From Clostridia bacterium (GTDB lineage: Bacteria > Bacillota > Clostridia > Monoglobales > Monoglobaceae), in NCBI GenBank assembly GCA_017409575.1, contig JAFQSM010000038.1, positions 1-64,000 on the forward strand: a stretch of 64,000 nucleotides of DNA, in the 5' to 3' direction. The position numbers and the translations under genes were made by a program. Of the stretch, positions 16,920 through 22,436 are shown one piece after another (position 1 is the stretch's first letter; every line of letters begins with the position of its first letter). Under the pieces are notes generated by a model. The model saw only the letters and a list, made by a program, of their open reading frames with translations. It had not been told where the DNA came from and made no database searches.

Positions 16920-18653
16920 ATGCTTAAAAAACTTGCCTCGTGCATTGGCGAATATAAACGGCCCTCAATTCTTGCACCTCTTTTTGTTATGCTTGAGTGT
17001 GTGCTTGAGGTTCTTATTCCCTGGCTTATGTCTTATATAATCGACCACGGCATTGAAAAAGGCGATATCCGACTGGTGGTGGCCATTGGTATTTTGCTCA
17101 CTTTTTTGGTTGTGCTTTCTATGTTTTGCGGTGCAATGTCCGGCAGATATGCTGCAATTGCATCGGCAGGTTTTGCAAAAAACCTCCGAAAGAAAATGTT
17201 CCATTCTGTTCAGGACTTCTCGTTCTCGAATATTGACAAATTCTCGACCCCGGGACTGGTAACAAGGCTTACTACAGATGTTGCAAATCTTCAAAACTCT
17301 TATCAGATGGTAATTCGTATAGCCTTCAGATGTCCCGCGATGCTTATTTTCTCGCTTTCGATGGCATTTTTCGTAAACTCCAGGGTTGCGCTTATTTTCC
17401 TTGCAATCATCCCTGTCCTTGGCGGAGGGCTTATCCTTATTGCTACCAAAGCTCACCCCATCTTCGAAAAAGTATTCAAAACCTATGACCGTCTGAACCG
17501 TGTTGTACGCGAAAACCTTCGTGGTATGCGCGTTGTGAAAGCCTTTGTGCGCGAAGCCTTTGAAGAAGAAAAATTCAAGACCGTCTCAAAAGAAATATAT
17601 GACAAATTCAGCAGTGCCGAGCGTCTGCTTTCTTTCAACGCACCGCTTATGCAAAGCTGTATGTATATTTGTATGCTTCTTATAGCATGGTTTGGCTCCA
17701 AACTGATCGTTGCAGGCGATATGACTCAGGGAAATCTTGTCAGTCTGATTTCATACACAAATCAGATACTTATGAGTCTTATGAGCTTTTCTATGATTTT
17801 TGTAACACTCACCATTTCAAAAGCTTCTGCCGAACGAATTACCGAAGTTTTGAGTGAAGTCTCAGACCTTTCAGACGGCAAAGAAAATATATGTGAGGTC
17901 AAAGACGGCTCGATTGAATTTAAAGATGTATCATTCAGCTACAACAAAAGCAAAAACAGTCTTTGCCTCAAAAACATCAGTTTCTCCATAAATTCCGGCG
18001 AGACGATAGGCATAATCGGCGCAACAGGCAGTGCCAAATCATCTCTTGTTCAGCTTATTCCAAGGCTTTATGACGCTTGCTCAGGCACAGTTCTTTTGGG
18101 TGGCAGAGATGTAAAGGAATACAACCTTAAAGCACTTCGCGATAATGTTTCGATGGTTCTTCAGAAAAACGAACTGTTTTCGGGCACAATTGCCGAGAAT
18201 CTGCGTTGGGGAAAAGAGGATGCTACCGAAGAAGAGATGATTCACGCTTGCCAACTGGCACAGGCAGACGACTTTATAAACAGCTTCCCTGACAAGTACA
18301 ACACGCATATCGAACAAGGCGGCAAGAATGTATCAGGCGGACAAAAACAGAGGCTTTGCATCGCCCGGGCCTTGCTTAAAAACCCCAAGGTGCTGATTCT
18401 TGACGATTCTACAAGTGCAGTTGACACACAAACGGACAGCCTTATTCGTTCGTCTTTTGCAAAAGAAATTCCCAATATAACAAAAATAATTATCGCTCAG
18501 CGAATATCATCAATACAGCACGCTGATAGGATTATTGTTATGGAAAACGGCGAAATAAGTGCTTTTGCACCACACGAAGAACTTCTTGAAACCAACCGGA
18601 TTTACCGCGAAATATATGAATCTCAGCAACGGGAGGTGATAGGCAATGAGTAG
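16920..18653 (+). CDS. ABC exporter half-transporter, degenerate-site subunit
   Basis: 577 residues: six membrane helices (about 1-310) then an ATPase domain. It is a type IV (MDR-like) half-exporter whose partner is the next gene. Two features mark its ATP site as the weak one of a heterodimer. Walker B ends in LDDS, with Asp where the catalytic Glu normally stands. Walker A reads GATGSAKS, with Ala at residue 372 in place of Gly (codon gcc at 18033-18035). Its own signature VSGGQ is close to normal. Substrate is unknown; drugs, peptides or lipids are typical for BmrC/BmrD-type pairs. Confidence 0.92.
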   Translation: MLKKLASCIGEYKRPSILAPLFVMLECVLEVLIPWLMSYIIDHGIEKGDIRLVVAIGILLTFLVVLSMFCGAMSGRYAAIASAGFAKNLRKKMFHSVQDFSFSNIDKFSTPGLVTRLTTDVANLQNSYQMVIRIAFRCPAMLIFSLSMAFFVNSRVALIFLAIIPVLGGGLILIATKAHPIFEKVFKTYDRLNRVVRENLRGMRVVKAFVREAFEEEKFKTVSKEIYDKFSSAERLLSFNAPLMQSCMYICMLLIAWFGSKLIVAGDMTQGNLVSLISYTNQILMSLMSFSMIFVTLTISKASAERITEVLSEVSDLSDGKENICEVKDGSIEFKDVSFSYNKSKNSLCLKNISFSINSGETIGIIGATGSAKSSLVQLIPRLYDACSGTVLLGGRDVKEYNLKALRDNVSMVLQKNELFSGTIAENLRWGKEDATEEEMIHACQLAQADDFINSFPDKYNTHIEQGGKNVSGGQKQRLCIARALLKNPKVLILDDSTSAVDTQTDSLIRSSFAKEIPNITKIIIAQRISSIQHADRIIVMENGEISAFAPHEELLETNRIYREIYESQQREVIGNE

Positions 18654-20547
18654 ACCCAGAGGTGCAATGCACATTTCAAAGCGTCCCAAGGATACAAAAG
18701 GAACTTTGTCAAGACTTCTTTCGTATATCTTTGGAAGCTACAGACTGCATCTTGCAGCAGTTTTAATTTTTATAATCATAAGCTCTGTCACCGGTGTACG
18801 AGGCTCGATGTTTGTCAGAACTGTTCTTGATAATTATGTGACACCTATGCTCAAAACCGGTTCGCGTGACTTTTCGCCACTTTTTCTGGCTGTCCTTCAG
18901 ATGCTGGGGATTTATGTAGCAGGAGTTTTGTCAACATTCCTTTATAACCGCATAATGATTATAGTGGGACAGGGTGTACTCAGAGATATCAGAGACGATA
19001 TGTTTGCAAAGATGCAAAAGCTTCCTCTATCCTACTTTGACACCCACTCTCATGGTGACACAATGAGCCGTTACACCAACGATGCTGACACTCTTCGCCA
19101 AATGATTACGCAAAGTATACCTCACACGTTCAGTTCGGTTATAACAATAATTTCTGTTCTTGTTGCAATGATATCGACCAGCATTCCTCTTACATTAGTC
19201 GTTCTTTGCATTGTGGCGCTTATTTTGCTTGTCAGCAAAAAAATAACAGGCAGAAGCTCGGGATTTTTTGTTGCTCAGCAAAAGTCGCTTGGTGGAGTAA
19301 ACGGTTTTATAGAAGAGCATATAAACGGACAAAAGGTTGTAAAGGTCTTTTGCCACGAAGAAAAAGCCAAAGCTGATTTTGACAAACTCAACGAGGAGCT
19401 TTGCCAAAATGCTACAAATGCAAATGTTCTGGCAAATATTCTGATGCCCATTATGGGAAACCTGGGTCACTTGCAATATGTACTTCTTGCAATGGCAGGT
19501 GGAATTCTTGCAATTTTGGGTGTACCCGGAATAACAGTCGGTATAATTGCCGCATTTTTGCAGCTTAGCCGAAGCTTCACCATGCCGATAAGCCATATGT
19601 CCCAGCAAATCAATTCGATAATAATGGCTCTTGCAGGGGCGGAGCGCATTTTTGAACTTGTTGACGAATCACCCGAAACATACGGCGGCACCGTATCTTT
19701 GGTCAAAGCAGACGAAGTTGACGGCAAACTTTCAGAGGTTTCAAAACGCACCGGAATCTGGGCATGGAAAAAGCCACTGGAAGACGGAACGTACAGCTAC
19801 ACACGCCTTTCGGGAGATGTTTTGCTGGAGAATGTAAACTTTGGATATACCCCCGAAAAAACAGTTTTGCATGACATTTCTATTTTTGCAAAACCGGGTC
19901 AAAAAATCGCACTTGTCGGGGCCACAGGCGCAGGCAAGACCACAATAACCAATCTTTTAACCCATTTTTATGATATAAATGACGGTAAAATCTTTTATGA
20001 CGGAATAAATATATCCGACATAAAAAAATCTGACCTTCGTATGTCGCTGGGGATGGTTCTTCAGGATACGCATCTGTTCACAGGAACAGTTATGGAAAAC
20101 ATCCGGTACGGCAGACTTGATGCTACCGATGAAGAAGTATACGAGGCGGCACGCCTTGCCAACGCCGATGGCTTTATCAGAATGCTTTCGGACGGATACA
20201 ACACTGTACTGAAAAGCGGTGGTGAGGGACTTTCGCAAGGACAAAGACAGCTTCTTGCCATAGCAAGAGCAGCAATTGCAGACCCTCCTGTTATGATTCT
20301 TGATGAAGCCACATCCAGTATTGATACCAGAACGGAACGGATTGTCCAAAAGGGCATGGATTCGCTTATGCAGGGAAGAACTGTATTCGTTATTGCACAC
20401 AGGCTTTCCACCATACAAAATTCTGATGTCATTATGGTTATGGACGGTGGCAAAATCATCGAGCGTGGCGACCACGACAAACTGATTGCTGAAAGGGGTC
20501 GGTACTACAGCCTTTATACCGGCTCGTTTGATGCAGACGAAGAATAA
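18646..20547 (+). CDS. ABC exporter half-transporter, catalytic-site subunit
   Basis: 633 residues, overlapping the previous gene by 8 bases, so the two are co-translated. Six membrane helices precede an ATPase domain with normal Walker A (GATGAGKTT) and Walker B with catalytic Glu (MILDEATSS). Its signature is LSQGQ, not LSGGQ. In heterodimeric exporters that altered signature faces the partner's degenerate Walker site, which fits the Asp and Ala seen in the first subunit. An insert of about 45 residues between the membrane and ATPase domains (VDGKLSEVSKRTGIWAWKK) is typical of the longer partner of such pairs. Confidence 0.93.
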   Translation: MSRPRGAMHISKRPKDTKGTLSRLLSYIFGSYRLHLAAVLIFIIISSVTGVRGSMFVRTVLDNYVTPMLKTGSRDFSPLFLAVLQMLGIYVAGVLSTFLYNRIMIIVGQGVLRDIRDDMFAKMQKLPLSYFDTHSHGDTMSRYTNDADTLRQMITQSIPHTFSSVITIISVLVAMISTSIPLTLVVLCIVALILLVSKKITGRSSGFFVAQQKSLGGVNGFIEEHINGQKVVKVFCHEEKAKADFDKLNEELCQNATNANVLANILMPIMGNLGHLQYVLLAMAGGILAILGVPGITVGIIAAFLQLSRSFTMPISHMSQQINSIIMALAGAERIFELVDESPETYGGTVSLVKADEVDGKLSEVSKRTGIWAWKKPLEDGTYSYTRLSGDVLLENVNFGYTPEKTVLHDISIFAKPGQKIALVGATGAGKTTITNLLTHFYDINDGKIFYDGINISDIKKSDLRMSLGMVLQDTHLFTGTVMENIRYGRLDATDEEVYEAARLANADGFIRMLSDGYNTVLKSGGEGLSQGQRQLLAIARAAIADPPVMILDEATSSIDTRTERIVQKGMDSLMQGRTVFVIAHRLSTIQNSDVIMVMDGGKIIERGDHDKLIAERGRYYSLYTGSFDADEE

Positions 20548-20550
20548 TTA

Positions 20551-20593
20551 AATGGGGATGTTTAAAAACATAGTTTTTAAACATCCTTCCATT
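20551..20593. terminator. Long AT-rich hairpin after the ABC operon
   Basis: A perfect 14-bp stem (20556-20569 with 20573-20586) around a 3-base loop, extended by aatgg/ccatt. There is no T run, so it may slow or protect transcript ends more than terminate them. Confidence 0.5.
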
Positions 20594-20620
20594 AGGGGAT
20601 AGGTAAAATTGATTCAGAAC

Positions 20621-20697
20621 ACGCAAACCGAGCCAAAGTCTTGACTTTGGGTTACCCGAAGGTGTACTTGTGTACACCGAGAGGCGAGGTTTGTGCG
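20621..20697. repeat. Structured dispersed repeat (three-way junction)
   Basis: An outer stem (20622-20629 with 20688-20697, one bulge) encloses two hairpins: 20633-20640 with 20643-20650, and 20661-20667 with 20672-20678. The fold is clover-like but lacks tRNA signatures. Read on the minus strand it gives a peptide (THKPRLSVYTSTPSGNPK) that I recall from many short spurious proteins in gut Clostridia, so it is probably a repeated non-coding element. Confidence 0.6.
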
Positions 20698-20718
20698 TAG
20701 CAAAAAGAATATAAAAAC

Positions 20719-20748
20719 AGAAAAATCGCATTGTTATGCGATTTTTCT
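20719..20748. terminator. Symmetrical terminator hairpin
   Basis: AGAAAAATCGCAT, a TGTT loop, then ATGCGATTTTTCT: a perfect 13-bp stem with A and T runs that can act in both directions. It follows the structured repeat. Confidence 0.75.
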
Positions 20749-20902
20749 ACATTTATAAGAGTTTTTTATTGCTAATTCAAGAAGAATACTATTTGCTTTT
20801 CCAGTCTTTTTGCGGTCTGGACTATTTTAACATCCCCTTTTTGGGTTTTCCAAAAATTTTTTTACTTTTTTTCAAATTCCCCTTTTATATTGTCGAAAAA
20901 TA

Positions 20903-20951: not shown

Positions 20952-22436
20952 ATGACAAAGATTGGATTTGATAATCAAAAATATCTGACCATGCAGTCAG
21001 AACAAATACGAAATCGCATTGCACAATTCGGCGGCAAACTGTATCTCGAGTTTGGTGGCAAACTTTTTGACGATTATCATGCATCCCGCGTTTTGCCCGG
21101 TTTTGCTCCTGACAGTAAAATCCGTATGCTTCAGCAGCTTGAAAAAGAAGTTGAAATTGTCATCACTATAAGCGCCGAAGATATCGAGGCAAACAAAACC
21201 CGCAGTGATATTGGTATCACCTATGACAGCGACGTTTTAAGACTGATTGACACATTCAGGGATATGAACCTTTATGTCGGCTCGGTAGTTCTCACGCGTT
21301 TTAACAGCCAGCCATCTGCCGTTGCCTTTTTAAAACACCTTTCCACTTTGGGAATCAAATGCTACAAACACTACTCAATCGCAGGGTATCCGTCGGATAT
21401 TCCTCATATTCTCAGCGATGAGGGTCTTGGCAAAAACGATTACATCGAGACAGACCGTTCACTTGTAGTTGTGACGGCTCCCGGTCCCGGAAGCGGCAAA
21501 ATGGCAACCTGCCTGAGTCAGCTTTATCATGACCACAAACGCGGAATAAACGCAGGTTATGCCAAGTTCGAAACTTTTCCGATTTGGAATCTTCCGCTCA
21601 AACACCCTGTCAACCTTGCATATGAGGCTGCAACCGCTGACCTTGACGATGTCAATATGATTGACCCGTTCCACCTCGAAGCTTACGGCAAAACTGCCGT
21701 AAACTACAATCGTGATGTCGAAATTTTCCCTGTTCTCAATACTATTTTTGAAAGAATTCAGGGTTATTCACCATACAAATCTCCAACCGATATGGGTGTA
21801 AATATGGCAGGTTTTTGCATTTTTGATGACGATGCTTGCTGCACCGCTTCAAAATTTGAAATTATCCGCCGGTACTATACCGTTGCATCCAATGCTTTCC
21901 GCGGCAGATGCGACGAAAATCAGACAAAGAAAATCGAGCTCCTTATGAATCAGGCAGGTATCACTCCCGACTTTTGTCCTGCAGTTACCGCAGCTCTTGA
22001 AAAAGCTGAAAAAACCAATTCGCCGGCAGGTGCATTGCTTCTTCCTGACGGGCGAATTGTCACAGGAAAAACGTCCAGCACACTTGGCGCAGCATCAGCA
22101 CTTTTGCTTAACGCCTTAAAAGTTCTGGGGAATATCGACGACAATCTTGACCTTATCGACGCAAAGGTGCTTGAACCTATCTGCGACCTTAAAACAAAGT
22201 ACCTTAAGCACAAAAACCCACGACTTCATACCGACGAGGTTTTGCTTGCACTTACCATTTCGGCTCTTTCCAATCCGATTTCAAAATCTGCAAAAGAAGA
22301 GCTTGAAAATTTAAGAGGAAGTGTTGCACATTTCTCGGTTATCCTAAGCGAAGAAGACGAAAAAATTCTTAAACGGCTGGGTATAAACGTAAGCTTTGAG
22401 CCAAGATACGAAACGAAAAAATTGTATCAAAAATAA
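20952..22436 (+). CDS. DUF1846 family protein
   Basis: 494 residues, the normal length of this family of conserved Firmicutes proteins. A P-loop-like segment APGPGSGKMATCLSQLYHD lies near residue 175. The N-terminus (IGFDNQKYLTMQSEQIRNRI) and FGGKLYLEFGGKLFDDYHASRVLPGF are characteristic. A structure is known for the family, but no reaction is established, so the role (nucleotide-dependent enzyme) is inferred. It is a single-gene unit with its own promoter, an aaggag site and a strong terminator. Confidence 0.9.
   Translation: MTKIGFDNQKYLTMQSEQIRNRIAQFGGKLYLEFGGKLFDDYHASRVLPGFAPDSKIRMLQQLEKEVEIVITISAEDIEANKTRSDIGITYDSDVLRLIDTFRDMNLYVGSVVLTRFNSQPSAVAFLKHLSTLGIKCYKHYSIAGYPSDIPHILSDEGLGKNDYIETDRSLVVVTAPGPGSGKMATCLSQLYHDHKRGINAGYAKFETFPIWNLPLKHPVNLAYEAATADLDDVNMIDPFHLEAYGKTAVNYNRDVEIFPVLNTIFERIQGYSPYKSPTDMGVNMAGFCIFDDDACCTASKFEIIRRYYTVASNAFRGRCDENQTKKIELLMNQAGITPDFCPAVTAALEKAEKTNSPAGALLLPDGRIVTGKTSSTLGAASALLLNALKVLGNIDDNLDLIDAKVLEPICDLKTKYLKHKNPRLHTDEVLLALTISALSNPISKSAKEELENLRGSVAHFSVILSEEDEKILKRLGINVSFEPRYETKKLYQK

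What the first reader, a model, noticed from the sequence alone, without database searches (positions are those of the whole stretch)
20554..20837. MITE-like island with a clover-shaped repeat
A 284-base non-coding island is bounded by inverted GGGGATGTT ends and holds a three-way-junction repeat (20621-20697) plus two terminator-like hairpins. The junction resembles a structured RNA and has the look of a family spread through gut Clostridia. I cannot name its class.
Basis: partly seen in the sequence, partly recalled or inferred. Interest (0 to 1): 0.5.

Follow-up and report, generated by a model that had tools for sequence, protein, structure and literature searches.

The report
Dispersed folded element at gene ends
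The island is one copy of a large, so far unnamed family of folded, repeated DNA elements that sit just behind genes in gut and rumen Clostridia, at places where relatives can have ordinary transcription terminators; what moves it and what its RNA does, if anything, is not known.

Summary
Window 20554-20837 is one copy of an interspersed family: 20 matches at E below 1e-6 in its own genome, 45 of 291 sampled genomes of its class (28 with ten or more), only the own genome among 398 of the phylum. The core covaries strongly (19 of 27 pairs with double changes; 220 double-change cells, 62.5 when shuffled); G-U over A-C (128:15) makes the window's + strand the folded one. No Rfam match. The core is kept more strictly than the ends: 38 of 82 nonredundant copies share a GGGATAGG-type left end, the others differ, some wholly. 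The junction's third arm is absent in 10 of 82. The gene beyond the right end runs against the element in 139 of 163, usually with its stop codon within about ten bases. At two occupied sites relatives show ordinary terminators. I read it as a non-autonomous, terminator-targeting mobile element that then acts as terminator; no mobilising enzyme was found (Y1 transposase, reverse transcriptase, IS110 tested). A functional RNA spread by other means remains a serious rival.

The parts
20554..20586 (+). left palindromic hairpin (arms 20556-20569 / 20573-20586); in some genomes a full terminator-like hairpin with a T-run; optional module
   Evidence: same module in copies; a hairpin of 10 or more pairs (G-T allowed) lies left of 85 of 145 complete elements (no shuffle control)
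20595..20618 (+). left end (LE), 5' strand of outer stem P1
   Evidence: fold; complementarity to the right end across copies
20619..20629 (+). stem A, 5' strand (pairs with 20688-20698)
   Evidence: covariation, (helix 1: 9 of 12 pairs with double changes)
20630..20632 (+). GA of the conserved tandem G.A mismatch plus a covarying G-C pair (with 20685-20687); Watson-Crick pairs replace the mismatch in L054, L194 and L125
20633..20650 (+). hairpin B, variable, absent in 10 of 82 copies
20655..20684 (+). hairpin C with conserved internal loop (CCCGAA / GAGAGG) and GTAC....GTAC stem; insertion point of a second repeat in other copies
   Evidence: inserts
20688..20698 (+). stem A, 3' strand
20700..20708 (+). 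stem D, 5' strand
   Evidence: pairs with 20805-20813; own partner beats swapped partners on average
20720..20747 (.). inner hairpin of the D loop; scores as terminator-like on the - strand
   Evidence: such hairpins in 40 of 78 (- strand) and 27 of 78 (+ strand) nonredundant copies
20805..20813 (+). stem D, 3' strand
20816..20837 (+). right end (RE), 3' strand of outer stem P1, followed by a T-run (20838-20842)
   Evidence: T enriched after RE
18646..20547 (+). upstream gene: ABC transporter (not part of the element)
20952..22436 (+). downstream gene: DUF1846 protein (not part of the element)

Best explanation
A non-autonomous mobile element of about 245 bp (about 284 bp with the left hairpin module) whose + strand folds into an outer stem P1, a conserved stem A with a conserved internal loop and hairpin C (plus an optional arm B), and a long stem D. 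It enters genomes at intrinsic terminators right behind stop codons and then serves as the terminator there, which keeps insertions harmless. Tandem arrays arise by insertion of further copies next to an existing right end. SHOWN: family, fold, folded strand, copy numbers, position and orientation relative to stop codons, unoccupied sites at two loci, arrays. INFERRED: that it moves by an enzyme acting in trans on the folded strand (as single-stranded DNA or RNA), that the terminator is the target, that arrays grow by insertion, and that it terminates transcription.
For: Copies: own genome 20 at E below 1e-6; 45 of 291 class genomes; in G100 about 40 full or partial matches, one at 81% and the others at 91-99%, while two copies of its congener G197 match at 72 and 75%. 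Fold: 95.8% of cells paired against 85.0% shuffled and at most 45.3% slid; own P1+D arms score 40.7 on average against 33.9 for swapped partners. Folded strand: G-U 128 against A-C 15 in 22 pairs of A1. Position: the right-hand gene is on the opposite strand in 139 of 163, its stop codon mostly within about ten bases of the right end; convergent neighbours 33 of 78 against 36 of 392 other pairs in the same loci (Fisher 2e-11); in same-strand neighbourhoods antisense 51 against 17 (4e-5). Unoccupied sites: G002 and G006 at the window locus, 281 and 269 bases shorter, with terminator-like hairpins by eye; G007 and G008 behind the orthologous gene of the C18 locus (by eye). Arrays in G095: neighbouring units 89-96% alike, all units 92.4% on average, up to 96.5%. 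A phage contig with terminase and holin genes carries a copy.
Against: No mobilising enzyme: in 55 genomes Y1 transposase is in 31, reverse transcriptase in 16, IS110 in 12, and element-rich genomes lack each of them. No gene-bearing copy found. No clear target duplication. Only 39 of 96 own P1+D scores exceed the 95th percentile of swapped ones, partly because many copies share one end type. The direct repeat of the right-end tail left of the element is weak overall (10 or more in 16 of 74 against 6.4% of swapped pairs). Same-strand bias against local background is modest (36:8 against 193:117, p 0.011). The window copy breaks the orientation rule (both neighbours on +). A third locus (C75 copy) gave no clear unoccupied terminator. 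Array evidence rests on 14 units and few neighbour pairs, most of them above the mean. Conserved unpaired core letters fit a functional RNA as well. Terminator-like D hairpins were seen in 46 of 78 copies on either strand.
Confidence: 0.55

Rival explanations
1. A multi-copy functional RNA (regulatory RNA or the RNA of an RNP) with its own terminator, transcribed from the + strand; its spread is secondary or by gene conversion.
For: Conserved unpaired letters in the core across the class (some fixed by the pattern), tandem G.A replaced by Watson-Crick pairs in three copies, T-run after the right end (4.1 T in 8 against 2.4 background), fixed place at gene ends.
Against: The consensus scan shows no + strand promoter inside the element in the window; lineage-specific sets of near-identical copies and arrays. 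No expression data; the identities of neighbouring genes were not annotated across loci, so a shared target gene is not excluded.
Confidence: 0.3
2. An ordinary MITE: a transposon deletion derivative moved through its terminal inverted repeats.
For: Complementary ends, dispersed copies, and a common end type in 38 of 82 nonredundant copies.
Against: The other ends differ, some wholly, while the core is kept more strictly; no parent transposon seen; no clear target duplication.
Confidence: 0.08
3. A REP-type element moved by a RAYT / TnpA-REP transposase.
For: Y1 proteins with open frames of about 250-305 aa, RAYT-like by my reading, occur in G000, G002, G005, G037, G058, G182, G239 and G325 (fragment in G171, weak 283-aa match in G059), all element-positive.
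Against: Element-rich G095, G150, G194, G204 and G296 have no Y1 match at E 1e-5; no element match in 20 loci of 3.3-7.8 kb around Y1 genes, some cut by contig ends; several of these genes are flanked by a different repeat (GGGGACGGTTCT type).
Confidence: 0.06
4. Convergent evolution of strong terminators that merely look alike.
For: They sit where terminators sit.
Against: The 90-position core with 94 bits is far beyond what terminators share.
Confidence: 0.01

Closest known systems
REP / BIME / REPIN repeats and RAYT transposases (PMC2817692, PMC3116915: search listing with start of abstract; PMC6006769: listing and found passages)
   Same: high-copy palindromic intergenic repeats without own transposase, in lineage-specific populations
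   Different: larger, two nested junctions, core conserved across a class, tied to stop codons with a preferred orientation; no Y1 match in several rich carriers
ERIC, BOX, Correia/NEMIS repeats (recalled, not tested)
   Same: structured non-autonomous repeats of roughly 100-250 bp in intergenic regions
   Different: here the end stems may change as long as they pair, while an inner core is kept
Group IIC introns (PMC10190682: start of abstract in a search listing; terminator targeting recalled)
   Same: structured element that targets hairpin DNA
   Different: no Rfam match in the loci scanned, no reverse transcriptase in several rich carriers
Intrinsic terminators
   Same: position right behind stop codons, T-run, terminator-like hairpin inside in about half of the copies
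   Different: carries a conserved fold of about 90 nt with no known role in termination
HEARO / IS605-associated RNAs (recalled)
   Same: conserved RNA that spreads in many copies
   Different: no match in Rfam scans; no nuclease gene seen attached

Membership tests
MITE | terminal inverted repeats shared by the copies | tested here: inconclusive
   GGGATAGG-type left end in 96 of 171 complete and 38 of 82 nonredundant copies; others differ, some wholly
MITE | target site duplication | tested here: inconclusive
   none seen by eye in own, G100 and G095 copies; T-rich on both sides
MITE | autonomous parent with the same ends | tested here: inconclusive
   none among 190 elements; 71 of 190 are overlapped by an ORF of 80 aa or more and 6 by one of 200 aa or more; the 20 of 150 aa or more run out over an end by the printed offsets; none was annotated there
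REP element of a RAYT | RAYT gene in the genome, flanked by the element | tested here: not met
IS200/IS605 derivative | Y1 transposase in the carrier | tested here: not met
   no Y1 match at E 1e-5 in element-rich G095, G150, G194, G204, G296; past loss of the enzyme not excluded
Group II (IIC) intron | reverse transcriptase and intron core | tested here: not met
   no RVT_1 in G000, G095, G100, G182, G239; no Rfam match
IS110 element with bridge RNA | IS110 transposase in the carrier | tested here: not met
   no match in G000, G100, G182, G239, G244
Any Rfam 15 family | score at or above the gathering cut-off | tested here: not met
   window, none; 20 carrier loci, only a tRNA; permissive scan of the island: every hit below its cut-off
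Intrinsic terminator | GC stem plus T-run behind a stop codon | tested here: inconclusive
   position and T enrichment met; termination itself not testable here
Structured RNA | covarying helices | tested here: met
Structured RNA | expression | not testable with these tools
   no transcript data

The most novel reading that the evidence does not exclude
The conserved fold is itself the unit of replication: a gene-less element whose RNA or single-stranded DNA is captured by an unknown host or phage enzyme and inserted at terminator hairpins, growing into arrays, so that in parts of the Clostridia a selfish folded element has taken over many transcription terminators.
Probability: 0.25. Interest if true: 0.85.

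Novelty: new variant of a known kind. Interest (0 to 1): 0.62.

Why it matters
It is a large, strongly covarying family with no Rfam 15 match in the loci scanned and no description in the papers that nine searches brought up. It combines traits not usually seen together: a conserved folded core, end stems that may change if they still pair, a preferred place and orientation behind stop codons, and many copies per genome. It gives a test case for how gene-less folded elements spread and how genomes replace terminators, and its model can annotate many gut and rumen genomes.

Tried and rejected
Rejected: single-copy or chance structure. Rejected: known Rfam family. No match of the window element in the plasmid or phage collections, nor of the phage-contig copy in the phage collection. 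Rejected as obligate partners: Y1, RVT_1, IS110; the link to RAYT-like proteins looked good at first (long forms only in positives) but failed on element-rich genomes and on flanking repeats. Rejected: an autonomous version in L195, L175 or L119; L195 is a truncated copy beside a serine-hydrolase-like gene, L175 looks cut by an IS3-like insertion, L119 is truncated (names by eye). Not informative: the C75 copy in the genus. Literature searches gave no description of this family; PMC8040213, PMC2864571 and PMC6006769 were seen as found passages only. Gene context used a simple ORF caller (80 or 100 aa), not a gene finder.

Rows dropped: of 105 nonredundant cores, 81 plus L001 went into alignment A1; I left out 24, mostly low-scoring or partial, which favours the covariation count. 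Of 190 elements, 19 scored under 36 and were left out of the context counts, and 8 of the other 171 had no downstream ORF.

Full report
WHAT IS THERE. The 284-base island lies between an ABC-transporter gene (stop at 20547) and a DUF1846 gene (start 20952). It holds a 14-bp perfect hairpin at the left, an outer stem, a branched core and a long stem with an inner hairpin. It folds better than 200 shuffles on both strands as RNA, and the element proper (20595-20837) also as DNA.

FAMILY. BLAST finds five more full-length copies (88-92%) and many partial ones in the own genome, and matches in 16 of 60 searched genomes, own included; two of these (G007, G055) have only one short match of about 35 bases. 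I aligned 82 cores and built model R1. R1 finds 20 copies at E below 1e-6 in the own genome, 22 at E up to 1, and matches in 45 of 291 genomes of the class, 28 of them with ten or more although at most 14 candidates per genome were scored. In a phylum sample that also held genomes of the own class, only the own genome matched, 1 of 398, with stricter filters. In the window there is one copy.

STRUCTURE. With the structure I named, 95.8% of cells pair; 19 of 27 pairs have double changes; 220 double-change cells against 62.5 shuffled; sliding destroys it. Relatedness inflates such counts, as the tool warns, but the margin is large. G-U pairs (128) outnumber A-C (15) in 22 pairs, so the window's + strand is the folded one. 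A tandem G.A mismatch inside stem A is replaced by Watson-Crick pairs in L054, L194 and L125. Arm B is missing in 10 of 82, so the three-way junction is not essential. Stem P1 and stem D vary and stay complementary: own partners score 40.7 on average, swapped ones 33.9, in 96 nonredundant elements; 39 of 96 exceed the 95th percentile of the swapped scores. The ends are not free of pattern: 96 of 171 complete and 38 of 82 nonredundant copies have a GGGATAGG-type left end, the others have other ends, some unrelated; mean ungapped identity is 0.53 for 12 bases of the left end and 0.75 for 42 bases of the core. So the core is kept more strictly than the ends, which is unusual for a MITE.

PLACE. 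For complete elements with simple ORF calls, the right-hand gene is on the opposite strand in 139 of 163, on the same strand in 22, not near in 2; left/right pairs are (+,-) 64, (-,-) 51, (?,-) 24, (+,+) 17, (?,+) 3, (-,+) 2, (+,?) 1, (-,?) 1. Its stop codon mostly lies within about ten bases of the right end. In loci of 5 kb or more, convergent pairs are 33 of 78 against 36 of 392 other neighbouring pairs. The window copy is one of the (+,+) minority. Left of the element there is often a hairpin (10 or more pairs in 85 of 145, no control), whose right arm resembles the element's own right-end tail in some genomes (weak overall). No gene was found inside a copy: ORFs of 150 aa or more that overlap one run out over an end (20 of 190).

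UNOCCUPIED SITES. At the window locus G002 and G006 keep both neighbours, with 135 and 53 bases where G000 has 416 and 322, and have terminator-like hairpins there by eye: in G006 one with GGGG/CCC ends and a T-run in the same place. At the C18 locus G007 and G008 have terminator-like hairpins behind the orthologous gene (by eye); the far side is not shared. The C75 locus was not informative.

SPREAD. G100 has about 40 full or partial matches, one at 81% and the others at 91-99%, many at contig ends; two copies of its congener G197 match at 72 and 75%. G095 has tandem arrays of about 240-bp units; neighbouring units are 89-96% alike, all 14 complete units 92.4% on average and up to 96.5%. That argues mildly for repeated insertion rather than duplication in place. 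IMG/VR contigs L205 and L207 share ORF sizes and may be one phage type; L207 has terminase and holin matches and a capsid-like protein below the Pfam cut-offs, and carries a copy next to the capsid-like gene; L206 looks bacterial.

MECHANISM. I propose insertion at intrinsic terminators by an unknown enzyme in trans that recognises the folded strand. D-loop hairpins score as terminator-like on the - strand in 40 of 78 and on the + strand in 27 of 78 nonredundant elements (both in 21), none in mononucleotide shuffles; on the - strand that would serve the right-hand gene, which could explain the orientation bias. This is inference. Tests for a partner failed: Y1 31 of 55, RVT_1 16 of 55, IS110 12 of 55 genomes, each absent from some element-rich genomes.

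KNOWN? No Rfam family matches, no plasmid or deposited-phage match. Nine literature searches found no description; supplementary candidate tables were not checked. I call it a new variant of the known kind 'dispersed structured non-autonomous repeat'.

Noticed in passing
L014, L015, L017, L019 (G000), L057 (G005), L298 (G100): A second sequence of about 230-290 bp is inserted at the tip of hairpin C in several copies of the element, in at least two genera; a shared stretch seen by eye suggests one family in opposite orientations.
   Followed up: partly
L278, L281-L284, L287 around the Y1 genes: Several RAYT-like Y1 transposase genes in these Clostridia are flanked by short palindromic repeats of the type GGGGACGGTTCT / AGAACCGTCCCC, which may be their own REPs.
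   Followed up: partly
L312, L313 (G000 contigs C73 and C75, ends): A short version without stem D; in L313 two copies in tandem with period 121 bp.
   Followed up: no
L207:4801-5004: A copy of the element sits in a phage contig beside a capsid-like gene, in the usual antisense orientation.
   Followed up: partly
G005:C14:46520-46638 (near L331): Hairpin plus right part without the core: an internal deletion derivative near the same gene that neighbours the full copy L005 in G000.
   Followed up: no
window 20824-20853, - strand: A promoter-like pattern overlaps the right end on the - strand, upstream of the D-loop terminator-like hairpin, so a short antisense RNA is possible (consensus match only).
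   Followed up: no
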